NCBI RefSeq assembly: GCF_900129775.1
Contig: NZ_FQWV01000012.1
Span: forward strand, 1-53,601
Origin: Halobaculum gomorrense
Lineage (GTDB): Archaea; Halobacteriota; Halobacteria; Halobacteriales; Haloferacaceae
DNA length: 53,601 nucleotides
Direction of reading: 5' to 3'
Shown here: positions 12,443 through 52,120 of the stretch, piece by piece
How positions within the stretch are numbered: position 1 is the stretch's first letter
Layout of the letters: the number at the start of each line of letters is the position of its first letter
Notes under the pieces: generated by a model
Told to the model about the DNA's origin: nothing
Seen by the model: only the letters and a program-made list of their open reading frames with translations
The model's database searches: none
Position numbers and translations under genes: made by a program

Positions 12443-14650
12443 ATGGTGCTCGCGATCGACTACGACGGCACCACGGTCGTCGAGTGGCGGCTCATGGCCG
12501 ACGGTGTCGAACGCACCCGCGTCGACGACTACCGACCCACGATGTACGTGGGAGCACCTGTCTCGGAGTTGTACGGCGAACACGGCGGGCAGTCACCGCG
12601 AGTGCAGCTACCGGCGCGAGGAGCGCTCACTGAGGCGCTTCAAGACCTCCGGACGTTCCTTGCGGGGCAGGCGGCCGTCGAGTCGCTCTCAGTGGGCGTG
12701 TGGCGCCAGACGTTCCGCGCTGACGCCCGGCCCGTCCTCAAGATCGAGTGTCGCGAGATCGACGACGTCCGCTCGGTCGCGCGGCGTGTCCAGCAGTTCG
12801 GCGCGGCGGACGCCTACACCTGCTACAACGTCGATGTGACGCGCCAGCTACGGTACACGCTCGAAACCGAGACCGATCCGGCGCCCGACACGGATGTTCG
12901 CGAGCTTCGCACGCTTGAACTGGGGTTTCCGGCCCACGAGTCCGGGGTGGAGGCGCTGCCGAAGCTCACCGTCGACGGTGAGTCAGTGGGATCGACGCCG
13001 AGGGAGGTGGTAGAGGCGGTTGGCGAGCGCGTCGCGAGCGTCGACCCGGACGTGCTGATCGTCGATACCGCCGAAGTCGTCCCCCTGCTGTTCGAGGCGG
13101 CGGGGGAGTACGGGCTTCGACCGTTCGAGCTTGGGCGTGAACCGGGGTATACACAGCTGGCGTCGGCCTCGACGTACACGAGCTACGGGAACATCGGCCA
13201 CTCGCCGGCGCGGTACTCGGTGCCGGGGAGAGTGCTGCTCGACCGCTCGAACTCGTTCTTTGTCCACGAGGCAGGCCTCGAGGGCTGTCTCGATCTCGTT
13301 GAGCGCGCTGGACTGCCGTTGCAGGAGCTCGGGTGGGCGTCGATCGGGCGGGTGCTGACGGCGATGCAGATTCGCGAGGCGCGTTCGCGGGGCGTGTTGG
13401 TGCCGTGGCAGGCGTGGCGCCCGGAGTTCTTCCGCTCGGCGGCGACGCTCGATACCGCCGACCGCGGCGGGACGACGCTCGCGCCGGAGGTCGGCGTCCA
13501 CGAGGACGTCCACGAGCTCGATTTTTCGTCGTTGTATCCGAACATCATCCGCGAGTACAACATCTCACCCGAGACGGTGCGGTGTGGCTGCTGTGATACC
13601 CCACAGGTTCCAAATGTGGGGTATAGTATCTGTGAGCGCGACGGGTACCTTCCCGCTGTGCTTGGCCCGTTGATCGACGGGCGGGATGCGATCAAACAGC
13701 GGATTCGTGAGTCCGAAGATTCGGCGGAGATCGCGGCGTTGGAGTCGCGCTCGGCCGCGATCAAGTGGATTCTGGTGTCGTGTTTCGGCTATCAGGGGTT
13801 CTCGAACGCGAAGTACGGCCGCATCGAGTGCCACGAAGCAATCAACGCGTTTGCCCGGGAGATTCTACTGGATGCGAAGGAAGCGCTCGAGGCCGGCGGG
13901 TGGCGCGTGTTGCACGGGATCGTCGATTCGATCTGGGTGACGCCCGCGTCTGATGTGGACGAAGAAGAGCGGCAGGAGTTGGATGTGATTGCTCGGGAAG
14001 TGAGCGCGGAGGTGGGCATCGAGTTGGAATATGAGGGAGCCTTCGAGTGGGTCGCCTTCTGCCCACGTCGCGGTGGCGATGGCGGGGCGCTCACGCGATA
14101 CTTCGGGCGGCGTCGTGGCGAGTCGTACCCGGAGGAGGGTGTGGGTGAGGCGGTGAAGACGCGAGGGATAGAGTGCCGGCAAGATGATACGCCGGCGTGG
14201 ATTTCGCGGTTGCAGGCGGCGTTGATCCGGACGCTGGACCGGACGCATGATGTGGAGGCTGTCGTCGGGGAGCTGCGACGGTGGCTCACTCGGTTAGAAG
14301 AGGGTGAGGTTGACCCGGTGGAGTTGCTGGTGACGCAGCGGGTGTCGAAGCGCGCTGAGCAGTACCGGTATGAGACGGTGACCGTGGCGGCGTTGAAGCG
14401 CTCGAAGTGGAAGGACTGTGCGCTCGAGCCCGGCCAGCGCGTCGAGTACTTGGTGGTAGATGATGATGCGACGGGGTTGGGGCGGGTACGACTGGGGCAT
14501 GAGTCGTTAGGGCGGTACGATGTCGAGTGGTACCGGCGTGAGGCGATCCGGGCTGCCGAGAGTGTGGTGTCGCCGTTGGGATGGGATCGCGAGCGGATTC
14601 AGCGGACAGTGTCGGGTGTTGTGGAGCCGTCGCTGGGGGAGTTTGGGTAG
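12443..14650 (+). CDS. polB: Family B DNA polymerase, divergent plasmid type
   Basis: A 735-residue PolB-like protein. Motif A is intact (ELDFSSLYPNII, Asp360), and so is motif B (AIKWILVSCFGYQGFSNAKYG). Motif C reads HGIVDSIWV: only the second Asp (Asp495) of the usual D-T-D remains. The N-terminal exonuclease domain is degenerate: MVLAIDYDGTTVVEW stands where Exo I D-x-E should be, and VLIVDTAEVV where Exo II should be, so proofreading is unlikely. Zinc-like cysteines sit near CGCCDTPQVPN and YSICERDGYLP. It is shorter than replicative PolB1. Neighbouring RecA-like and coiled-coil genes suggest error-prone repair rather than replication. The start could instead be an earlier codon near 12430. 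Confidence 0.85.
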   Translation: MVLAIDYDGTTVVEWRLMADGVERTRVDDYRPTMYVGAPVSELYGEHGGQSPRVQLPARGALTEALQDLRTFLAGQAAVESLSVGVWRQTFRADARPVLKIECREIDDVRSVARRVQQFGAADAYTCYNVDVTRQLRYTLETETDPAPDTDVRELRTLELGFPAHESGVEALPKLTVDGESVGSTPREVVEAVGERVASVDPDVLIVDTAEVVPLLFEAAGEYGLRPFELGREPGYTQLASASTYTSYGNIGHSPARYSVPGRVLLDRSNSFFVHEAGLEGCLDLVERAGLPLQELGWASIGRVLTAMQIREARSRGVLVPWQAWRPEFFRSAATLDTADRGGTTLAPEVGVHEDVHELDFSSLYPNIIREYNISPETVRCGCCDTPQVPNVGYSICERDGYLPAVLGPLIDGRDAIKQRIRESEDSAEIAALESRSAAIKWILVSCFGYQGFSNAKYGRIECHEAINAFAREILLDAKEALEAGGWRVLHGIVDSIWVTPASDVDEEERQELDVIAREVSAEVGIELEYEGAFEWVAFCPRRGGDGGALTRYFGRRRGESYPEEGVGEAVKTRGIECRQDDTPAWISRLQAALIRTLDRTHDVEAVVGELRRWLTRLEEGEVDPVELLVTQRVSKRAEQYRYETVTVAALKRSKWKDCALEPGQRVEYLVVDDDATGLGRVRLGHESLGRYDVEWYRREAIRAAESVVSPLGWDRERIQRTVSGVVEPSLGEFG
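13597..13623. repeat. TACCCCACA palindrome, copy 1 (inside polB)
   Basis: TACCCCACA, nine bases ending TTCCAAA, then TGTGGGGTA. The same inverted repeat recurs at 36556-36581 and 51050-51075. Here it encodes part of a cysteine-rich segment of the polymerase. Confidence 0.6.
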
Positions 14651-14742
14651 TGGGACAGGCTCCACCATTAGGACCGAATTCCAAGTCGTGAACCATCGCA
14701 CGGTCGCAGTACTCTCGTGAGTTTCTCTTCAGCTACACAAGA

Positions 14743-14768
14743 TGTATATGCTTTTGCTCCGTAGCAAA
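14743..14768 (+). promoter_or_regulatory. Promoter and operator-like palindrome of the helicase gene
   Basis: A TATA-like TGTATATGC (14743-14751) is followed at once by TTTGCTCCGTAGCAAA. A perfect palindromic version, TTGCTCCGGAGCAA, recurs inside the coding sequence at 15013-15026, and TGCTCCGGAGCA at 15056-15067. The placement over the expected transcription start suggests a repressor site, perhaps for the helicase's own winged-helix domain. Confidence 0.5.
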
Positions 14769-14795
14769 TTCAACAAACGGAGCCCCGATATCACG

Positions 14796-16679
14796 ATGCC
14801 AAAGAACACACAGTATCCATTAGAAGATGTCCGAGAATCTGTCTTTGAACTTCTCTCTGAACAGCCGTTCGTGACGACGGGTGGTGTCGCTAAAGCCCAT
14901 GGAATGGACTCAGAAACCGCTCGACTCAAGCTCAACAAGTTGGTTGAGCAAGATACTTTGAAAACACGTCAGATTGGTGCTAGTGCCCGTGTCTGGTTTT
15001 CTGACGCTAATATTGCTCCGGAGCAAATACTTCAGAAGACAGCCGCAGAAGGATCTGCTCCGGAGCAAATGTCTGAGCGTACACTCTTTTTCCCCAGTCG
15101 CCGAGAGATTGTGGTTGACTCACCTCAAGACGAGACACGCGACATACTGTCACGAGTCGCACATCTAGTTGACTCAACTGGTAGTGGCTTCCTCTACAAA
15201 ATTGACCAAGAAGACATCTGGACAGCGGCATACGACACTTTCGACACTCTCCGTTCTGATCTCCAAGCTGTCGTCGGCGATGAGTGGACAGCGAGTTTTG
15301 AGAGTCGAATTCGAGACGATTGGGACCGTGCACATCAGTTCCGTTTGCGGACGCGAGTTGCAGACTCCAACCAGTACAGCGTACTGGAAGCCGATGATCA
15401 GGACCTCTTCGAGAGCGTTGCGAAGGCAAATCTCGACTACAACACACATTACACGGAATTTCTCTCTGAGACGGCGATGCGGATCAAGAACGGTGCAGAG
15501 GCGAGCGTCAAAGAAGTCCTTTACGAGGAGGGATATCCGGTCCTTGATGAGCGCCGACTCAAGGACGGTGCTTCACTTGAGGTCCAGCTGGGCGACGAAT
15601 TTGATCTCCGTGAGTATCAGCAACGATGGGTCGATCAGTTCGCCGAGCGACGTGCGGGTGTGTTCGTTGGCCCATCTGGCTCGGGCAAAACCGTCGCAGC
15701 GATCGGAGCGATGGAGGCAATTGGTGGGGAGACACTCATTATCGTCCCATCGCGAGAGCTCGCCCAGCAGTGGGTTACAGAGCTAACTGAGAAGACGAAC
15801 CTTGATCAGTCGCAGATCGGGCAGTACCACGGGGGCCAGAAGGAAGTTCGCCCGGTGACGATCGCGACATACGATATTGCCGCGATGAAGCGTCACCGAG
15901 AGTTATTCAACGAGCGAGACTGGGGGCTCGTGATCGCGGATGAATGCCACCATGCTGTCGCCAGCACATGGAAGCGTTTCCGTGAGATTCAATCGACAGC
16001 TCGACTCGGGCTGAGTGCGACACCCGTTCGGGAGAGTGGCGACGCGAAAGAGATCTACACTCTAATTGGACCACCAATCGGTTCAGACTGGCGGGAACTG
16101 TTCGAGGCGGGCTGGGTATCGCAGCCAGAAGTCGAGATGCGGTTGGTAGGCTGGGAATCCGAAAGCGCTCGAGACCAGTACAAACAGGCCGATGGGACCC
16201 AGAAACTCATCGAGGCAGCCCGTAACCCAGCGAAGCAGAGCGCGATCTCTGACCTGCTGGAGCGCCACAGTGGCGAGAAGGCCCTTATTTTCGCAGACTG
16301 GATTGAACAAGGGAAAGACCTCTCCAACGCGCTGAACTTGCCGTTCATCTACGGGGAAACGAGCCACGAGAGACGGGAGTCGATATACCAGCAATTCCGA
16401 GATGGAGACATAGAGGCACTCATCGTCTCTCGGGTCGGCGACGAGGGAATCGATCTACCAGATGCAGAGGTAGCGATACTTGCGTCGACGATGGGATCGT
16501 CACGGTCACAGACTGGTCAGCGAGCTGGTCGAACGATGCGCCCATTCGGCGATGCGGCTGTGTACCTCTTGTTGACGAAAGGAACTGGAGAAGAAGAGTG
16601 GGGCCGCGAGTCGACGCAGTATCTCGCTGAGAAGGGTGTTAGTGTGCAGAAGACAGGGAATAGCGATTCTGTTCCATAG
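14796..16679 (+). CDS. Winged-helix SF2 helicase (XPB/Rad25-like), candidate defence gene
   Basis: 627 residues from ATG 14796. Residues 8-70 form a winged helix (DVRESVFELLSEQPFVTTGG, ETARLKLNKLVEQ). Residues 100-260 are helical and unassigned. The helicase core has Walker A GPSGSGKT (292-299), motif Ia IIVPSRELAQQW, DEAH-box variant DECH (382-385), SAT (407-409) and a C-terminal RecA domain with ALIFADWIEQ, SRVGDEGIDLP and motif VI QRAGRTMRP. This is the XPB-like DNA translocase type common in archaeal restriction and defence loci. It is followed by two genes of the same orientation and a convergent paralogue, forming a compact module next to the CRISPR island. The defence role is inferred from company and domain types. 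Confidence 0.82.
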   Translation: MPKNTQYPLEDVRESVFELLSEQPFVTTGGVAKAHGMDSETARLKLNKLVEQDTLKTRQIGASARVWFSDANIAPEQILQKTAAEGSAPEQMSERTLFFPSRREIVVDSPQDETRDILSRVAHLVDSTGSGFLYKIDQEDIWTAAYDTFDTLRSDLQAVVGDEWTASFESRIRDDWDRAHQFRLRTRVADSNQYSVLEADDQDLFESVAKANLDYNTHYTEFLSETAMRIKNGAEASVKEVLYEEGYPVLDERRLKDGASLEVQLGDEFDLREYQQRWVDQFAERRAGVFVGPSGSGKTVAAIGAMEAIGGETLIIVPSRELAQQWVTELTEKTNLDQSQIGQYHGGQKEVRPVTIATYDIAAMKRHRELFNERDWGLVIADECHHAVASTWKRFREIQSTARLGLSATPVRESGDAKEIYTLIGPPIGSDWRELFEAGWVSQPEVEMRLVGWESESARDQYKQADGTQKLIEAARNPAKQSAISDLLERHSGEKALIFADWIEQGKDLSNALNLPFIYGETSHERRESIYQQFRDGDIEALIVSRVGDEGIDLPDAEVAILASTMGSSRSQTGQRAGRTMRPFGDAAVYLLLTKGTGEEEWGRESTQYLAEKGVSVQKTGNSDSVP

Positions 16680-16738
16680 TACAGGACTGACGACAGTCTG
16701 AGAAGAGCTTATGTGCATTCCAATAACTATCCAAATAT

Positions 16739-17461
16739 ATGCCAGATTACCCGATTCCGAAGCGGACTACCGATGAGCAACTTCTCAAGGTTGTTCAAGG
16801 ATACTATAGTACCGGGGGACACAACAATCCGGTTTCAAGCACGGAGGTCGACGACATTATTGGTACGTCCGATGTTACTGGGAGGCAGACTTCGTTCCTC
16901 GAGGAGATAGGAATCGTTGGAAAGGATGGACGACAGCGAATGCTAACCGATTCTGGGAGCGATATCGGCGAGGCCCTTATGGGCAACAATGAGGATTTAG
17001 CCCGAGAGAAGTTCCGAACCCTCCTCAACGATTGGGAGTTCACCGAGAAGATAACCGGATTTGTGGAGATGGGTGACGAACCCACTGATGAGGCACTCAC
17101 CCAGTACATCAAATCGAACGCGTCTTCTGACGACGCTAGAGGAATAAGCGCACTTGTCGATCTACTCGTTTGGTCAGATATCCTTGAGAAAAACGACTCT
17201 GGGGATTACATTACTGCAAATGACCCAGTGACTGCATCAGATCCAGATCACGAGTCAGGTCAGACACCTAGTAATCCTCGACAGGGTGATCAAGACACCA
17301 AGAAGGATAGTAGTGCACAAGAGCAATCTCAATTCCAATCGAACGGATCTGACCAGTTTAACATCAGCTTTGAGTTCTCTGCCGATGATGATCCTCAGGA
17401 CATCGAGGAGACTATCACGGCAGCTCGCCGCGCGATTGAGTTGGATTTGAGTGATGACTGA
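16739..17461 (+). CDS. DUF5343-like protein (paralogue 1)
   Basis: 240 residues. The N-terminal two thirds are helical with a winged-helix look: EQLLKVVQGYYSTGGHNNPV, ITGFVEMGDEPTDEALTQYI and ALVDLLVWSDILEKN. A Gln/Ser/Asp-rich linker follows, then a C-terminal strand-helix unit (QFNISFEFSADDD, then a helix ETITAARRAIELDL). The layout resembles DUF5343 proteins; that match is tentative. A paralogue with the same layout lies convergently at 18437-19276. The gene overlaps the next one by 8 bp, so the two are co-translated. A TATA-like CTTATGT lies about 27 bases before the ATG. Confidence 0.65.
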   Translation: MPDYPIPKRTTDEQLLKVVQGYYSTGGHNNPVSSTEVDDIIGTSDVTGRQTSFLEEIGIVGKDGRQRMLTDSGSDIGEALMGNNEDLAREKFRTLLNDWEFTEKITGFVEMGDEPTDEALTQYIKSNASSDDARGISALVDLLVWSDILEKNDSGDYITANDPVTASDPDHESGQTPSNPRQGDQDTKKDSSAQEQSQFQSNGSDQFNISFEFSADDDPQDIEETITAARRAIELDLSDD

Positions 17462-18440
17462 TGAGGATGAATACTCGCTCTACGCGCGAGTTGTAAAACC
17501 AGATTTAGTTTTAGAGGCTGTTTTCGGGATTGCTGAGTCACCGGCACCGATGGATCCTGATAGCCTCCAGGAGTTCATCGACCGCGAAGAGCGATATACA
17601 GATGCAGTCATCCACCTCGCGAAGGAACTCAACATGGCTCGTGAAGCCCCTGCTGGGCTTGTTGTCGATCCTGAGATTGAGGACGAGATCAAAAGAGCGT
17701 CTCCGGATCAACGCTTTGTCATTCTCAATCGCTATGTCCAGCGGTACGAGCCGTTCACCACCTTCTCATCATTTATCAACAAGGGCTACTCTGCCGAGGC
17801 AGCTGCGCGGAAGGTAAATTCGCTCTATCAGATGAACATTGCAGACTCCAAGCTGAAATCACAGTTACTCAACCTTGGGGAGTATGCCGAGATCATCTCA
17901 GTTGGCGATGAGCCGCGCGTTACGGGCATTGGCGAAGACCCGCTGAGCGAGAAATACGTTGAGGACCTACTGACAGCGCTTCAGTCAGAAATGAGCGCGC
18001 GTCTATTCTTAGAAGACCGGCTTGGTGAGGACCTTGTGAGGTACCTCGACCATGGATCGTTCGAGGAACTTATCGCCGCACTACGCCTCTTCGAGGATGA
18101 ACCACGGAGTGCAATCGCAGCTGCTGGACGGGCCGTTGAGGATTTTCAACGTGACTTGGCTGCGGACTACGGAAGTGAGGACCGAGATTACCAGTCTGCC
18201 TCTGGGATTGGACAACTGACGATGCACCTGAACGGTGATGATCTAATGATGAAACGTCACCTCCATGGTGGTAACTACCTCGGCGGGATGCGCAATCCCA
18301 GCGGTGGACACGGTAAGGACACAGAGACATTGGAGCGCTGGGATGTCTCTTCAGAAGTCGCACTCGAGTATGTTCTGGCGGCAACTCACTACATCCGGAG
18401 CCAGTATCGCTACACTACGGAGCTCAAGCAGATTCTCTAA
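17454..18440 (+). CDS. Abi_C-like (abortive-infection C-terminal) protein
   Basis: 328 residues from ATG 17454. The N-terminal part is helical (VLEAVFGIAESPAPMDPDSL, VILNRYVQRYEPFTTFSSFI). The C-terminal part contains GGMRNPSGGHGKDTETLERW and then SEVALEYVLAATHYIRSQY. The R-N-x-x-G-x-H-G-K-D pattern followed by a long helix is what Abi_C/HEPN-like C-terminal domains show, where the conserved Arg/His serve RNA cleavage. It is coupled to the upstream DUF5343-like gene, and its end overlaps that of the convergent paralogue by 4 bp. Likely the toxic effector of the module. The family call is moderate. Confidence 0.55.
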   Translation: MTDEDEYSLYARVVKPDLVLEAVFGIAESPAPMDPDSLQEFIDREERYTDAVIHLAKELNMAREAPAGLVVDPEIEDEIKRASPDQRFVILNRYVQRYEPFTTFSSFINKGYSAEAAARKVNSLYQMNIADSKLKSQLLNLGEYAEIISVGDEPRVTGIGEDPLSEKYVEDLLTALQSEMSARLFLEDRLGEDLVRYLDHGSFEELIAALRLFEDEPRSAIAAAGRAVEDFQRDLAADYGSEDRDYQSASGIGQLTMHLNGDDLMMKRHLHGGNYLGGMRNPSGGHGKDTETLERWDVSSEVALEYVLAATHYIRSQYRYTTELKQIL

Positions 18441-19276
18441 TCGAAGTCGTCAAGCCCGATCTGCCCTTCGTCTTCCTCAGATTCCGAATCGCGTTTTGGA
18501 TCTGTTTCACTTAGGCTATCAGAGACTGCCCTCATTGTCTGTTCAATAGCTTCTTCAGAATCGCCTGTAGCGATCTCCACGTTGATGTTTACTGAATAGT
18601 CGATAGAACGCTCAATACCCCGAGATGGACTGGCTTGAGGCTTATTGAGCTGATCTACTTCTGGACTGGGTTGTTCAGTCTCATCAGGTTGATCTGATTT
18701 CCCATTTGTACCTTGGTCTATGCTAGAATTCTGATGAGAGGTGTCTGTGTGGTCCTCGATTTCGTCCTCACTTCTAGCAGAGAATGCTTCGCCGTTTTTG
18801 TACAGGATCTGTGCGTCAATTAGGAGATCAACAAATGCGTGGGTAGACGAGGCACTCTTATTTTCAGTCTCTGTCAGCGTTTCTACTTGCTCAATAAGTT
18901 CTTCCTCAGAAGGGTTCTTGATCGCTGCAAAATCTACTATGTCCTGCGTGACAGAGAAGTCGAATAATCCGTTGACGATCGCTTTCGCAGGGTTCGATTG
19001 GTCGCTTCTAATCGCTTCCGCGTAAGCGATGCCTTGGTCTGTCAATTGTTTTGACTGCCCATCTTCGGTCAGCACATCGACTGCCAAGAGGAACTTGTTA
19101 TTCCGGGAAACGATAGAGGAGTCGATACCCAGTTTTCTAGCAGCATCACCGTTTGAGCATGCTTCGTCGGCAGCTCCGGCTGAATACCATGCGAAGACAA
19201 TCTGCTCAAGTGATTCAAGAGAGACTTTTTCGGGTAAGGGTTCGGGCATAACATGTCTACCAAACTCAAAGGACAT
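18437..19276 (-). CDS. DUF5343-like protein (paralogue 2), convergent
   Basis: 279 residues from ATG 19276. A TATA box (TATTTAAA, 19299-19306) sits about 27 bases upstream, right for a leaderless message starting at this ATG. An inner ATG at 19249 (MPEPLPEKVS) aligns better with paralogue 1. Domain order is the same: N-terminal helical/winged region (SLESLEQIVFAWYSAGAADE, KQLTDQGIAYAEAIR), STHAFVDLLIDAQIL, a polar linker, and the strand-helix end (IDYSVNINVEIATGDSEEAI). The opposite orientation gives independent control, possibly as sensor or antitoxin to the other strand's operon. Confidence 0.65.
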   Translation of the reverse strand: MSFEFGRHVMPEPLPEKVSLESLEQIVFAWYSAGAADEACSNGDAARKLGIDSSIVSRNNKFLLAVDVLTEDGQSKQLTDQGIAYAEAIRSDQSNPAKAIVNGLFDFSVTQDIVDFAAIKNPSEEELIEQVETLTETENKSASSTHAFVDLLIDAQILYKNGEAFSARSEDEIEDHTDTSHQNSSIDQGTNGKSDQPDETEQPSPEVDQLNKPQASPSRGIERSIDYSVNINVEIATGDSEEAIEQTMRAVSDSLSETDPKRDSESEEDEGQIGLDDFD

Positions 19277-19298
19277 ACAATTATCTAATTTTAGTTAG

Positions 19299-19306
19299 TA
19301 TTTAAA
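19299..19306 (-). promoter_or_regulatory. TATA box of paralogue 2
   Basis: TTTAAATA on the minus strand, centred about 27 bases before ATG 19276, inside an AT-rich stretch. This is the standard spacing for a leaderless haloarchaeal transcript. Confidence 0.6.
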
Positions 19307-19445: not shown

Positions 19446-19759
19446 ATGAGCCAGGCCACGCTCGGGGCCACGCCCTACCGCAATTCGGACCTCTTCTCGG
19501 GATACTATCTCGACGAGCGCGTCGACGATCTCGACGCCTGGGACTGCGACCAGGAAGCCCAAGCCGCCCTCGAGGAACTCCAACATCTGTGGGAACTGGA
19601 AGGCGAACTCGTCGCCTCCTACAAAGAGGACGAGCTGCTCGACTCGTGGATCGACGAAGTGCTGGACGTCCTCGGGTTCGGATCCCTCTCGTAGACCACC
19701 CTCCCGGACAGCGAGGGGTAGAACGGCCGGCTGTTGTTCGAACCTGACGAGGTACAGTA
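19446..19759 (+). pseudogene. Eco57I-type restriction-modification gene, N-terminal remnant
   Basis: Begins MSQATLGATPYRNSDLFSGY, continues YLDERVDDLDAWDCDQEAQA and DELLDSWIDEVLDVLGFGSL, then hits TAG at 19692. The same frame continues TTLPDSEG-stop-NGRLLFEPDEVQ. As I recall, this matches the start of very large haloarchaeal Eco57I-like restriction/methylase proteins (over 1,000 residues). Two in-frame stops and loss of everything after about 105 residues make it dead. It ends within 22 bases of the distal CRISPR repeat, suggesting that a recombination joined the two. Confidence 0.7.
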
Positions 19760-19780
19760 GGTCACGTTCGTCTCCTATAA

Positions 19781-22036
19781 GCTTCAACCCCTCATAGGTA
19801 CATCTGGAACTCCTTCCCGCCTGAGATATGCAGGCACGGCGAGTCGCTTCAACCCCTCATAGGTACATCTGGAACCGAATCAGGCGTGTCGGATAACGAG
19901 TTCGTGAGGCTTCAACCCCTCATAGGTACATCTGGAACACGCACTACGCCGGCCGGGTGACGGTCGACCTCGATGGGCTTCAACCCCTCATAGGTACATC
20001 TGGAACGACACCGACCCCGACGACATGGCTACCGACGAGGAGCTTCAACCCCTCATAGGTACATCTGGAACAACTCGCACATCGGAATTGCTGTTGATGG
20101 TGGTGATGCTTCAACCCCTCATAGGTACATCTGGAACTCGCTTGAGAGCGCCGAGGCCAACGCCACGACCAACAGCTTCAACCCCTCATAGGTACATCTG
20201 GAACCGAGTTGATCCCGTTCTGGAGTGCCTCCGAGGAGTTGCTTCAACCCCTCATAGGTACATCTGGAACTAGGCACTCAATTGACTGTTCTGGGTAAAA
20301 CGGTGTGCTTCAACCCCTCATAGGTACATCTGGAACACCGGCGGGATGCGGTCCTCGCGTAATAGTGAGTCGCTTCAACCCCTCATAGGTACATCTGGAA
20401 CACGTCTTGCGTTATCTGGATGTCCTCATAGGTCCAGCTTCAACCCCTCATAGGTACATCTGGAACGCGCTGTTGCAAGAGGCGTTGCAGCACGCGGAGA
20501 CGCTTCAACCCCTCATAGGTACATCTGGAACTTTCCTCAACAGTTACCGTATCGCCGCCGATCCCGTGCTTCAACCCCTCATAGGTACATCTGGAACAGC
20601 GTCGTGGACCGAACGAACCGCCGCACCCGGCGCTTCAACCCCTCATAGGTACATCTGGAACCGCGTTCGCGGTCGCACGCCGATGTCGAGTCCCGCTTCA
20701 ACCCCTCATAGGTACATCTGGAACCAACCCAAATTCGCCTTGGGCGACTGGCGATGGCTCGCTTCAACCCCTCATAGGTACATCTGGAACTCGCCTTCGC
20801 CCCCGAGCACGATCACGATCCGGTCGCTTCAACCCCTCATAGGTACATCTGGAACACCGACGGCGAGGGGACCACGACGACGGTGGACGGGCTTCAACCC
20901 CTCATAGGTACATTTGGAACACTCCTCGTTCTGCTGCTCCTGGATCGTCAGCCGGTTGCTTCAACCCCTCATAGGTACATCTGGAACGTCGTGCAGGCCA
21001 AGCGGGGCAACACGGACGGGGTGCTTCAACCCCTCATAGGTACATCTGGAACCCCGCCGTTATTCTGTGCCTCTACCGTCGCCCGTTCGCTTCAACCCCT
21101 CATAGGTACATCTGGAACCGTGCGTGCGCTGCTCGAAGAGCGCACGCAGGAGAGCTTCAACCCCTCATAGGTACATCTGGAACAGCGTCGACGACAGCTA
21201 TCACATCGCCGGCAATCTGCTTCAACCCCTCATAGGTACATCTGGAACTCGTGGGGATAGCGCGCTCGCTTCTTCATCAGGACGGCTTCAACCCCTCATA
21301 GGTACATCTGGAACGCGTGTAGCGCGCGCATGGTGTGGATGGGTTATTAGCTTCAACCCCTCATAGGTACATCTGGAACGTACAAGCCCGGCGGAGCCGC
21401 AGCCGACAAGACCGTGCTTCAACCCCTCATAGGTACATCTGGAACTCGTGGGGATAGCGCGCTCGCTTCTTCATCAGGACGGCTTCAACCCCTCATAGGT
21501 ACATCTGGAACGCGTGTAGCGCGCGCATGGTGTGGATGGGTTATTAGCTTCAACCCCTCATAGGTACATCTGGAACGTACAAGCCCGGCGGAGCCGCAGC
21601 CGACAAGACCGTGCTTCAACCCCTCATAGGTACATCTGGAACACCACTGGACCGGAGGTCTGGAGACACTCCTACGAATGCTTCAACCCCTCATAGGTAC
21701 ATCTGGAACCCATCATGGAGGCGTCGATCCCGGCGTTTGACTACGCTTCAACCCCTCATAGGTACATCTGGAACGGTCGTGCAGGCCAAGCGGGGCAACA
21801 CGGACGGGGTGCTTCAACCCCTCATAGGTACATCTGGAACGCGCCCAGTTTTCCCCGGCATACAAACATGAAATGAGCTTCAACCCCTCATAGGTACATC
21901 TGGAACTCGTTATCCACGAAACGGTAGGGCATCTCGATGGGGCTTCAACCCCTCATAGGTACATCTGGAACTTCGCGTTCTCACCCGTGGCGTCGACGAG
22001 TGCGCTGCTTCAACCCCTCATAGGTACATCTGGAAC
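19781..22036 (-). CRISPR. CRISPR array 1 (35 repeats, 34 spacers)
   Basis: Thirty-five 30-bp repeats, on the plus strand GCTTCAACCCCTCATAGGTA followed by CATCTGGAAC; one (20891) has CATTTGGAAC. The transcribed strand is minus: the repeat there ends GGGGTTGAAGC, giving the usual 8-nt 5' handle, and a leader homologous to that of array 2 lies at 22037-22138. Spacers are about 34-37 nt. A three-spacer block is duplicated in tandem (21249-21445 and 21446-21642), and one spacer occurs twice with a 1-nt length difference (20988-21022, 21775-21810). Unusually, the distal repeat is perfect, so the old end was probably cut off. The repeat differs from array 2 by one base. Confidence 0.98.
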
Positions 22037-46482: not shown

Positions 46483-47412
46483 ATGGATTTGGATGTTGCT
46501 GAGGAGCAAATGTGGTGGCGGCTGAAGGCTGGTCGCGGCGGTGTTCTTGAAGACGATTGGCTCGAGCAAAAGATCGTCACGACTGGTTGGGGTGGTGCAG
46601 CAGGAGACTACCGAGAGCAGTCTCCCGAAGAATTCCGTAACGGCGATCCCAGCGATCTCCAAGCGTCGAAATTTGTCGGGCATCACGACGATGGAATGCG
46701 CGCTGGCGATGTTGTTGTGGCGTATGCTCCAGGAAAGGGTCACATCTCCGGTATTGGAACAGTTGGGGAGATTCAATATAATGAGGATAGGGTTTGGCGT
46801 CATCTGTCGGAATCCGAAGCAGCTGACGCGATGGTTCAGGACCATTACTATTGGCGGCCAGTCACGTGGTTTGATCTTGGCACCCCTGTTCGTGTTCCTG
46901 ATCTTTCAGAGCGCTTCCGAGTGAACGGTGCAGATCAGATCCCGACTCCAGGGACGCTCAGCCAGTTCGGTACTCTTTCCAGTGATCGAGACCGAATCGT
47001 GTCTCTCGTCGAGGAAGTTCGCAATGCAGAGACTGTAACGCCATCTGGCCCCGGATTCGGGCCGGATCAAGAAGCTGAGATGCAGGAATGGCTTGCAGCA
47101 AACATTCAGACCCTGGGACTCCAGAATGCTCGTAGAGAGTTCAGGACCGACGTAGGTCGTATCGATATCCTCGCAGAGGACGACAATTCCGAGACGGTGA
47201 TCGAAGTCAAACGCGGGCGAGCGGGGGACCGTGCTCTTGGACAACTCCTTGGGTATATGGGAGCACGAACTGATGAAGTCAATCGCCAAATCACCGGAAT
47301 TCTGGTAGCGGAAGATTTCACGTCTCGTATCGAGCGTGCCGTTACTGCGTTGGATAGGGTCTCGCTCTATCGATTCAATGTCGATGTGTCGATTGAACCG
47401 ATGAACACATAA
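46483..47412 (+). CDS. EVE-NucS nuclease, likely modification-dependent restriction enzyme
   Basis: 309 residues. The N-terminal ~150 residues look like an EVE/PUA-type domain (MWWRLKAGRGGVLEDDWLEQ, GDVVVAYAPGKGHISGIGTV) that would flip out and read a modified base. The C-terminal domain (195-309) is NucS/DUF91-like nuclease: EFRTDVGRIDILAEDDN with Asp228, VIEVKRGRAGDRALGQLLGY with Glu242-Val-Lys244. This architecture suits a type IV, modification-dependent restriction enzyme. It is a single gene, divergent from the VapBC-type pair. Catalytic residues are intact. Confidence 0.78.
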   Translation: MDLDVAEEQMWWRLKAGRGGVLEDDWLEQKIVTTGWGGAAGDYREQSPEEFRNGDPSDLQASKFVGHHDDGMRAGDVVVAYAPGKGHISGIGTVGEIQYNEDRVWRHLSESEAADAMVQDHYYWRPVTWFDLGTPVRVPDLSERFRVNGADQIPTPGTLSQFGTLSSDRDRIVSLVEEVRNAETVTPSGPGFGPDQEAEMQEWLAANIQTLGLQNARREFRTDVGRIDILAEDDNSETVIEVKRGRAGDRALGQLLGYMGARTDEVNRQITGILVAEDFTSRIERAVTALDRVSLYRFNVDVSIEPMNT

Positions 47413-51469: not shown

Positions 51470-52120
51470 TCACATCGCCTCGAGGACAGCTTCCAGCTCG
51501 TCGCGGCGTGTGTACGTCGTCATGAGTGTTGTCCCCGCGATCGAGGCGATCGCCTCGTGCGTTGGCGATGACGCGAGATCAACGAGATCGTACGCGTAGA
51601 CGAGACACGCGGCGGCGATTCCCGCTTGCGAGCGATTGATCGTCTTGCCCGCATCGTCGAGTGCTTCGAGACAGGCGAACGCCTCTGTCGCCACAGCGTC
51701 CGGTGGATTTGCTTCGAAGCAAAGCTGCAGGAGTACCGTCTCGACATCTGTGAGTACGAGCGGGACCTCACCTGTGCCCTGTAGTTGCTTGACCGCTTCT
51801 CGAGCAGCGAGTTCCTCGACATCCAGCGCGGCGGCAATCCGGCACAACGGCCGCGGGAGTCCAGCCGCGATGCTCTCGATCCGGAGGGCGGCGGCAGCGA
51901 AGGGCCGAACACCACGGCCACGGAGTAGATCGTGCTCGTTTGCGACGACGAGCTGGTCACTTGCCGCGTTGCCGACTCGGTCGGAGAGTCGGAGCTCTTG
52001 GACTGCGGTCGCGGCCGCGCTTTTGCCGCGGTTCCAGGGCGCCTTCGTCCCTGCCTGATTCTCGTTACGAGTGCGGTGCCGAGCGCGCCACTGCGAGAAA
52101 AAGAAGCTGAGAACCGTGCG
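51470..52120 (-). pseudogene. TFB-like (TFIIB) transcription factor, start lost
   Basis: An open frame without ATG or GTG runs from the stop codon at 52121 to TGA 51470. It reads FSQWRARHRTRNENQAGTKA, then AVQELRLSDRVGNAASDQLV, RPFAAAALRIESIAAGLPRP and the second cyclin repeat NRSQAGIAAACLVYAYDL, PTHEAIASIAGTTLMTTYTR. These are the two cyclin folds of a divergent TFB. The zinc ribbon is missing and the only start is an internal TTG. It is probably a truncated remnant, or a TFB read through from the upstream frame. Confidence 0.55.

What the first reader, a model, noticed from the sequence alone, without database searches (positions are those of the whole stretch)
14743..19306. Candidate undescribed defence module: winged-helix helicase + two DUF5343-like paralogues + Abi_C-like protein
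Four genes fill 4.5 kb with overlaps, sit next to the CRISPR island, and combine an SF2 DNA translocase with an Abi_C/HEPN-like candidate effector. Two paralogous DUF5343-like proteins lie on opposite strands, the second with its own TATA box and convergent 4-bp overlap. I know of no named system with exactly this set. The mechanism could be DNA sensing by the helicase followed by RNA cleavage by the Abi_C protein, with the paralogues as adaptor and brake.
Basis: inference. Interest (0 to 1): 0.85.

Follow-up and report, generated by a model that had tools for sequence, protein, structure and literature searches.

The report
Haloarchaeal helicase, adaptor and HEPN-ribonuclease cassette
Four adjacent genes in a salt-loving archaeon look like an antiviral cassette, built on a predicted RNA-cutting protein paired with DNA-binding-type adaptor proteins, to which this genome adds a DNA motor related to a repair helicase.

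Summary
The four genes are real and intact, but the labels need changing. P0001 (14796-16679) belongs to a distinct, patchy clade of archaeal XPB helicases (8 of 382 genomes; support 100/99); the genome also has an ordinary XPB. P0003 (17454-18440) is a predicted HEPN protein with Rx5H and Ex3R motifs, but it does not match Abi_C. P0002 and P0004 are diverged members of one tailed adaptor family; neither matches DUF5343. The conserved core is adaptor + HEPN: an adaptor-family gene is adjacent in 10 of 10 P0003-family loci found, including one Bacillota MAG. The helicase is optional (2 of 10). Yet 5 of 8 XPB-clade loci carry a HEPN (2) or HEPN-like (3, by motif only) protein within about 1.5 kb, against 0 of 22 other XPB loci, and the two XPBs beside P0003-type genes are sisters. 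Related cassettes use HerA instead. P0004 ends in a haloarchaeal PCNA-binding (PIP) consensus. Best reading: an abortive-infection-like cassette in which adaptors hold a HEPN RNase at DNA, with the XPB motor as an add-on sensor. Activity, antiviral function and complex formation are inferred. New variant of a known kind.

The parts
14796..16679 (+). P0001: XPB-clade SF2 helicase with an N-terminal winged helix (annotated ORF starts at 14742; 14796 is the likelier start)
14753..14768 (.). palindrome TTTGCTCCGTAGCAAA in the likely promoter of P0001; candidate operator
15012..15027 (.). second copy of the palindrome, inside P0001 after the winged helix
15054..15069 (.). third copy of the palindrome (one base off the exact 14-mer), 42 bp from the second
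16739..17461 (+). P0002: adaptor 1 (possibly winged-helix N-part, low-confidence linker, C-terminal tail)
17454..18440 (+). P0003: N-terminal winged-helix-like part (about residues 1-130) plus C-terminal HEPN domain (about 191-328); annotated ORF from GTG 17451
18291..18311 (+). HEPN active-site motif RNPSGGH (Rx5H) of P0003
18437..19276 (-). P0004: adaptor 2, convergent with P0003 (alternative start at 19249)
18440..18463 (-). codons for QIGLDDFD, C-terminal PIP-box-like peptide of P0004 (QxxLxxFx)
19299..19306 (-). TATA-like TTTAAATA upstream of P0004

Best explanation
An abortive-infection-like cassette. The core is a HEPN ribonuclease (P0003) and a wHTH-type adaptor encoded just before it (P0002), translated together. 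The adaptor binds the HEPN protein through their winged-helix-like parts and the tail, keeps it inactive and holds it at DNA. In this genome a second adaptor (P0004) with a PIP-like C-terminus could tie the complex to PCNA at replication forks. An XPB-clade translocase (P0001) is the DNA sensor/motor: when it engages abnormal (viral or plasmid) DNA it remodels the adaptor-HEPN complex, the HEPN domains pair and cut RNA, and growth or virus production stops. Shown here: the gene set, the families, the HEPN motifs, the conserved adaptor-HEPN neighbourhood, the XPB clade and its neighbours. Suggested only: the HEPN fold and the winged-helix fold of the adaptors (weak models). Inferred: RNase activity, inhibition by the adaptor, PCNA binding, DNA sensing and antiviral function.
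For: HEPN: Ex3R and Rx4-5H kept in 10 of 10 family members; both motifs, and the place of Rx4-6H at the end of helix 3, are as described in PMC3710099 (passages). In the model R280 ends helix 263-280. The top four VIA-align rows for residues about 191-328 are archaeal HEPN-type structures (Z 10.6, 9.5, 9.1, 8.7); rank 5 is a Roquin ROQ domain (8.2) and ranks 6, 7 and 9 are Csm6 (8.0, 7.7, 7.2). Core pair: an adaptor-family ORF is adjacent in 10 of 10 P0003-family loci, upstream on the same strand in 8. The two adaptor types are homologous (hhalign E 2.2e-10). XPB link: clade support 100/99, window and L044 sisters 99/98; 5 of 8 clade loci have a HEPN or HEPN-like protein within +-1.5 kb versus 0 of 22 other XPB loci, and 0 of 6 other XPB loci with flanks of up to about 9 kb. 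The HEPN-like part of type A10 occurs in 7 of 382 genomes, and 3 of the 7 lie beside the rare XPB clade. PIP-like end of P0004 against QxxLxxFx (PMC7776575 passage). Setting: CRISPR-Cas next door (cas names by reading) and a type IIG R-M remnant at 19446.
Against: The structure models are poor (mean pLDDT 51 for both), the Foldseek E-value of the HEPN match is 2.6, and the tool warns that helical bundles reach such Z by chance. The A10 proteins are HEPN-like by their Rx6H motif only (kept in 6 of 7, lost in L158): no Pfam match, no PDB sequence match, no similarity to the P0003 family, no Ex3[KR] in most, and one weak PADLOC hit to a CARF-HEPN model (0.0027). Eight of 10 adaptor-HEPN loci have no XPB-clade gene beside them, and the 7 haloarchaeal genomes among these have none at all, so the helicase is not required. 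The adaptor family is not defence-specific: in 16 of 16 P0002-relative loci outside the HEPN and HerA settings, neither HEPN type was found in the 19-kb stretches read. Three of 8 XPB-clade loci (L106, L107, L109) have no HEPN found. No Pfam, PADLOC or NCBIfam model recognises P0002-P0004 convincingly. No expression or virus data.
Confidence: 0.42

Rival explanations
1. P0002-P0003(-P0004) is a simple two-component toxin-antitoxin / plasmid-stability module: HEPN toxin plus wHTH antitoxin that represses its own operon. The helicase is an unrelated mobile neighbour.
For: Antitoxin-first gene order with overlap; the adaptor-HEPN pair stands without XPB in 8 of 10 loci; integrase-like genes nearby in L045, L048, L049 (by reading) and plasmid location in L044.
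Against: The two XPB genes beside P0003-type HEPN are sisters in the tree (99/98), and a second, dissimilar HEPN-like family also sits beside the same XPB clade in 3 loci. Coincidental neighbours should not repeat like this.
Confidence: 0.32
2. P0001 is a stand-alone, self-regulated repair or anti-plasmid helicase; its wHTH binds the palindromes and represses its own gene, and the HEPN operon is a separate defence gene in the same island.
For: Three near-identical palindromes sit in the promoter/5' part of P0001; the exact 14-mer TTGCTCCGNAGCAA has no site elsewhere in 3.2 Mb; there is a 59-bp gap before P0002; the wing of the wHTH is regular in this clade (by reading).
Against: The repeated XPB-HEPN association. 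A one-mismatch relative of the palindrome lies at 51708 in the same contig, away from P0001.
Confidence: 0.16
3. The HEPN-like domain of P0003 is not an RNase but a structural or substrate-binding helical domain, and the cassette regulates genes rather than cutting RNA.
For: Low-confidence fold; some HEPN domains are non-catalytic (PMC3710099 passage); one A10 relative has lost the motif.
Against: R and H of the motif and the Ex3R motif are invariant in 10 of 10, across haloarchaea and a Bacillota MAG.
Confidence: 0.1

Closest known systems
HEPN superfamily RNases (Anantharaman et al. 2013, PMC3710099; passages read)
   Same: Rx4-6H, polar residue after R in 8 of 10, Ex3[KR], helical model, adjacent regulator gene
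   Different: No match to a Pfam family; N-terminal wHTH-like part; partners are tailed adaptors, not MNT nucleotidyltransferases
Archaeal XPB helicase (NCBIfam NF045503)
   Same: Helicase core and colinear middle domain (E 2.5e-109)
   Different: 366 bits, under the 610-bit cut-off; separate clade with [IV]ADEC, STxGSS(R/K)(S/A)QTGQ and RED changed to RE[SA] in 8 of 8; patchy, often beside HEPN-like and wHTH genes
DndCDEA-PbeABCD (PMC6459918; passages)
   Same: Haloarchaeal four-gene defence set with an SF2 helicase; P0001 matches PbeA models over the helicase core
   Different: PbeA carries a PLD domain; PbeB is 66 aa, PbeC SMC-like, PbeD 152 aa; the own housekeeping XPB matches PbeA too; no PbeB-D match for P0002-P0004
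HEPN-MNT (HepT-MntA) toxin-antitoxin (abstracts)
   Same: Two-gene HEPN RNase module
   Different: No MNT nucleotidyltransferase match among the four proteins
HerA-adaptor cassettes of haloarchaea (L069, L071, L072, L156; found here)
   Same: Same tailed adaptor family; in L156 an A10-type HEPN-like protein lies beside HerA and the adaptor
   Different: Motor is HerA, not XPB

Membership tests
HEPN superfamily | Rx4-6H motif | tested here: met
   R281..H287 kept in 10 of 10 rows of A4
HEPN superfamily | Ex3[KR] acidic motif upstream (many families) | tested here: met
   E230, R234 invariant in 10 of 10; definition from PMC3710099
HEPN superfamily | HEPN helical-bundle fold | tested here: inconclusive
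   Top VIA-align rows are HEPN (Z 10.6-8.7), but model pLDDT is 51 and Foldseek E 2.6
HEPN superfamily | RNase activity | not testable with these tools
   needs enzyme assay
Abi_C (PF14355) | match to the Pfam profile | tested here: not met
   0 matches in the own genome at E<=10; none at E<=1 for P0003 and the L116 homologue
DUF5343 (PF17278) | match to the Pfam profile | tested here: not met
   0 matches in the own genome at E<=10; no match at E<=1 for P0002, P0004 and 9 homologues (2, 7)
XPB DNA repair helicase (NF045503) | score over the curated cut-off (610 bits) | tested here: not met
   366 bits; family-level homologue, separate clade
XPB DNA repair helicase (NF045503) | helicase motifs I, II, V/VI | tested here: met
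PbeABCD | PbeA PLD domain and PbeB, PbeC, PbeD partners | tested here: not met
   no PLD match in P0001; no PbeB-D match in P0002-P0004; description
HEPN-MNT toxin-antitoxin | MNT nucleotidyltransferase partner | tested here: not met
   no nucleotidyltransferase match in P0001, P0002 or P0004
PIP-box (PCNA-binding) proteins of haloarchaea | C-terminal QxxLxxFx | tested here: met
   P0004 ends QIGLDDFD; consensus from PMC7776575. P0002 has no such end
PIP-box (PCNA-binding) proteins of haloarchaea | binding to PCNA | not testable with these tools
   needs binding assay

The most novel reading that the evidence does not exclude
A combinatorial family of archaeal immune cassettes in which interchangeable DNA motors (a mobile XPB clade or HerA) are coupled, through tailed wHTH-type adaptors that may dock on PCNA, to interchangeable HEPN RNases. 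DNA-replication sensing would thus trigger RNA cleavage. XPB, known as a repair and transcription helicase, would have been recruited into antiviral immunity.
Probability: 0.25. Interest if true: 0.82.

Novelty: new variant of a known kind. Interest (0 to 1): 0.58.

Why it matters
Few haloarchaeal defence systems are worked out. If the reading holds, an XPB-family helicase, whose role in archaea is unsettled, acts in immunity, and a family of small tailed adaptors is the shared connector between different motors and different RNA-cutting effectors. This makes direct tests possible in Haloferax volcanii: does the HEPN protein poison cells, does the adaptor silence it, does the motor trigger it?

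Tried and rejected
DUF5343 and Abi_C labels: rejected on profile searches. PF17277 was searched first by mistake; it is DUF5342. PbeABCD: considered because of the PbeA hit, rejected because the own housekeeping XPB hits PbeA too and the partners differ. Viral spread: five viral-contig scans and one phage search found no relative of P0003, its family or P0004. Plasmids: one P0003 relative, Haladaptatus sp. QDMS2. Common origin of the two HEPN types: hhalign shows no similarity, so they are treated as two families. PDB sequence searches with the P0003 and A10-type profiles: nothing relevant. Adaptor fold: Foldseek found nothing; VIA-align lists mostly MarR/DtxR-like winged helices at Z 5.6 or less for residues 6-87, too weak to claim. 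Conservation of the palindrome: not found at the promoters of L044 and L104-L109; half-site-like repeats in L109 were not followed up. Rows dropped before counting P0003-family loci: G274 (a 49-residue fragment) and G296 (a long protein that I read as PEP-synthase-like; taken as a chance match), both. Partner genes of L047 (lacks its N-terminal part) and L048 (two ORFs) are fragmentary but counted as adjacent.

The P0003-family search over the phylum found 2 of 246 genomes, both already known. The family-wide search for the XPB clade found only the 4 already known of 170 genomes. The HMMs used were built from the loci under test, so only the zero counts there and the genome-wide counts are independent; A10 itself was noticed because it lies beside the XPB clade. 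The looser C-terminal motif was defined after seeing the adaptors. A p of about 4e-4 for 5 of 8 against 0 of 22 is a hand calculation from the counts and ignores relatedness. Papers: only search listings, abstracts and passages were seen, no whole paper. Passages of PMC12988326 and PMC12839542 showed nothing on this set. The absence of this set from print rests on searches, in an open-access library only.

Full report
WHAT IS THERE. Four open frames fill 14742-19276. P0001 is an SF2 helicase (ERCC3_RAD25_C E 6.7e-24, ResIII 4.4e-23; NCBIfam XPB 2.5e-109, 366 bits against a 610-bit cut-off). Its true start is probably 14796, because MPKNTQYPLEDVRE aligns with the start of its closest relative (MPTKNTQFPIDDVRA). 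P0002 ends 8 bp inside P0003 when P0003 starts at the ATG 17454. P0003 and P0004 converge with a 4-bp overlap. P0002 and P0004 are related (24% identity, E 1e-13). No Pfam family matches P0002, P0003 or P0004 over its cut-off. The CRISPR array begins near 19780, and the cas genes follow (cas names by reading).

P0003 HAS THE HEPN MOTIFS BUT IS NOT A MEMBER OF ABI_C AS PFAM DEFINES IT. P0003 matched 11 of 391 class genomes; two rows are a fragment and a likely chance match, which leaves 9 including the own genome. A scan of GTDB genome contigs added one Bacillota MAG locus, L116 (29% identity, E 1e-32). In the alignment of the 10 members (A4) the residues E230, R234, R281 and H287 are invariant. 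They form the Ex3[KR] and Rx4-6H motifs described for HEPN RNases (PMC3710099, passages). The AlphaFold model from two sequences is poor (pLDDT 51), yet it puts R280 (numbering from the ATG) at the end of a helix, as expected. The four best VIA-align rows are 2hsb, 1wol, 2q00 and 4nqf (Z 10.6, 9.5, 9.1, 8.7), over residues about 191-328; rank 5 is a Roquin ROQ domain (8.2), and Csm6 rows follow at 8.0, 7.7 and 7.2. The titles name 2hsb, 1wol and 4nqf as HEPN; that 2q00 and Csm6 hold HEPN domains is recalled. Foldseek itself gave 2hsb only E 2.6. The N-terminal part (profile positions 8-129) is related to a 329-aa winged-helix-type protein in HerA loci. PF14355 does not match.

P0002 AND P0004 ARE TAILED ADAPTORS. 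Each has a helical, possibly winged-helix N-part (VIA-align residues 6-87, Z at most 5.6, weak), a low-complexity linker and a C-terminal tail that I read as strand-helix. Adaptor-family proteins lie next to all 10 P0003-family genes: upstream on the same strand in 8 (window, L045-L050, L116), convergent in L044, divergent in L051. In L047 and L048 the adaptor gene is fragmentary in my ORF calls. The window-type and second-type adaptors are homologous (hhalign E 2.2e-10 over 237 columns; blastp). The 506-aa adaptor of L044 looks like a fusion of a P0002-type half (E 7.8e-5, probability only 34%) and a second-type half (probability 99.9%). So in both XPB-linked P0003 loci there appear to be two adaptor units for one HEPN. 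P0004 ends in QIGLDDFD. H. volcanii PIP boxes are QxxLxxFx (PMC7776575 passage). A C-terminal Qxx[LIM]xxF occurs in 5 of 850 ORFs of the fetched loci and window; three of the other four are one repeated protein. A looser end motif, defined afterwards, occurs in 9 of those 850, of which 7 are adaptors, three of them near-copies. P0002 itself lacks it. Against a defence-only role: P0002 matched 32 of 391 genomes. Three of these are P0003-type loci; four match only through the tail, three of them beside HerA and one at a contig end. Of the other 25, I fetched 16 with wide flanks: in 16 of 16 neither HEPN type was found in the stretch; 13 are long proteins of 367-829 aa and three are about 235 aa.

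P0001 BELONGS TO A SPECIAL XPB CLADE. XPB-like genes at E<=1e-100 are in 348 of 382 genomes; the own genome has an ordinary one at C15:24150-25727. Only 8 of 382 carry the P0001 type (E<=2.3e-240). In a tree with 24 other XPBs these 8 form one group (100/99); window and L044 are sisters (99/98), and L104, L105 and L106 another group. The 8 share [IV]ADEC, STxGSS(R/K)(S/A)QTGQ and RE[SA] in place of the RED motif (the RED name is recalled; 4 of the 24 others also depart from RED). Their winged helix keeps a regular wing, by reading.

THE XPB-HEPN LINK. In the window the XPB gene is followed by an adaptor and the P0003-type HEPN gene; in L044 directly by the HEPN gene. In L104, L105 and L108 it lies beside another, HEPN-like protein (A10, motif RNxRDSVH), together with small wHTH proteins and, in at least part of these loci, proteins with a beta-beta-alpha element. 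A10 is called HEPN-like by motif only: Rx6H is kept in 6 of 7 relatives (lost in L158), Ex3[KR] is absent in most, and no Pfam family or PDB sequence matches. A4 and A10 types show no profile similarity. Within +-1.5 kb a HEPN (2) or HEPN-like (3) protein is found in 5 of 8 XPB-clade loci and in 0 of 22 other XPB loci. Genome-wide, 19 of 382 genomes match A10, 7 of them in the HEPN-like part and 12 only in the C-terminal wHTH part; 3 of the 7 lie beside the XPB clade. In a fourth (G075, L156) the protein lies beside HerA, a tailed adaptor and a small wHTH protein; L069, L071 and L072 have HerA, adaptor and wHTH with a non-HEPN 329-aa protein instead. On the other hand, 8 of the 10 P0003-family loci have no XPB-clade gene, and three XPB-clade loci (L106, L107, L109) have no HEPN found. 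The helicase is therefore a recurrent add-on, not a fixed part.

REGULATION. TTTGCTCCGTAGCAAA lies in the likely promoter of P0001 (14753-14768), and two near-copies lie inside the gene after the winged helix (15012, 15054). In the window the 16-mer pattern with up to 2 mismatches has 9 strand-matches against 0.09 expected; six are these three sites, and three are at 46495 and 51708. The exact 14-mer pattern has two sites in the 3.2-Mb genome, both here. I read these as operators for P0001's own winged helix (inference). They are not evident in the relatives.

HOW IT WORKS (inference from the above). The adaptor-HEPN pair is the effector unit; the adaptor holds the RNase inactive and near DNA. 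The XPB-type motor and the second, PIP-ended adaptor would place the unit at replicating or damaged foreign DNA and release it there. The HEPN domains then pair and cut RNA, giving dormancy or death of the infected cell. Rivals are a plain toxin-antitoxin pair with a neighbouring helicase, an independent self-regulated helicase, and a non-catalytic HEPN domain.

NOVELTY. No PADLOC or NCBIfam family describes P0002-P0004, and the literature searches listed no paper that I recognised as describing an XPB-HEPN cassette; only open-access text was searched. HEPN effectors and helicase-containing defence sets are known, so I call it a new variant of a known kind. Defence function itself is untested.

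Noticed in passing
19446-19694 +: 82-aa remnant of the N-terminus of a type IIG (Eco57I/TaqI-like) restriction-modification gene, 94% identical to a Halobaculum roseum plasmid protein, cut off just before the CRISPR array.
   Followed up: partly
14753-15069: Three near-identical palindromes, one in the promoter and two inside the helicase gene; two of them are the only exact TTGCTCCGNAGCAA sites in the genome. A related palindrome TTTGCTTCGAAGCAAA lies at 51708.
   Followed up: partly
L069, L071, L072, L156: Haloarchaeal HerA cassettes: small wHTH protein, tailed adaptor, HerA ATPase, and a convergent effector-position gene (an A10-type HEPN-like protein in L156, a 329-aa winged-helix-type protein in the others).
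   Followed up: partly
L104-L106, L108: Around the XPB clade: unclassified small wHTH proteins, and proteins with a beta-beta-alpha element such as LRLHVSIGDVTVDVEGP; the five of them scanned have no Pfam match over a cut-off.
   Followed up: partly
21218-21642: A 197-bp block of the CRISPR array (about three repeat-spacer units) is duplicated with 100% match.
   Followed up: no
12443-14650 +: A complete type-B DNA polymerase (NF004418, 912 bits) lies directly upstream of the cassette; the contig also has Orc1/Cdc6-, ParA- and integrase-like genes (by reading), so it is probably a plasmid or island.
   Followed up: no
L055-L063, L065-L067, L073: The P0002 N-part is fused to long proteins (367-829 aa; those read are Ala/Glu-rich and end in a similar tail) in many haloarchaea; role unknown.
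   Followed up: no
L116:8091-14203: The Bacillota adaptor-HEPN pair sits between an Mrr restriction endonuclease and an SF1-type helicase.
   Followed up: partly
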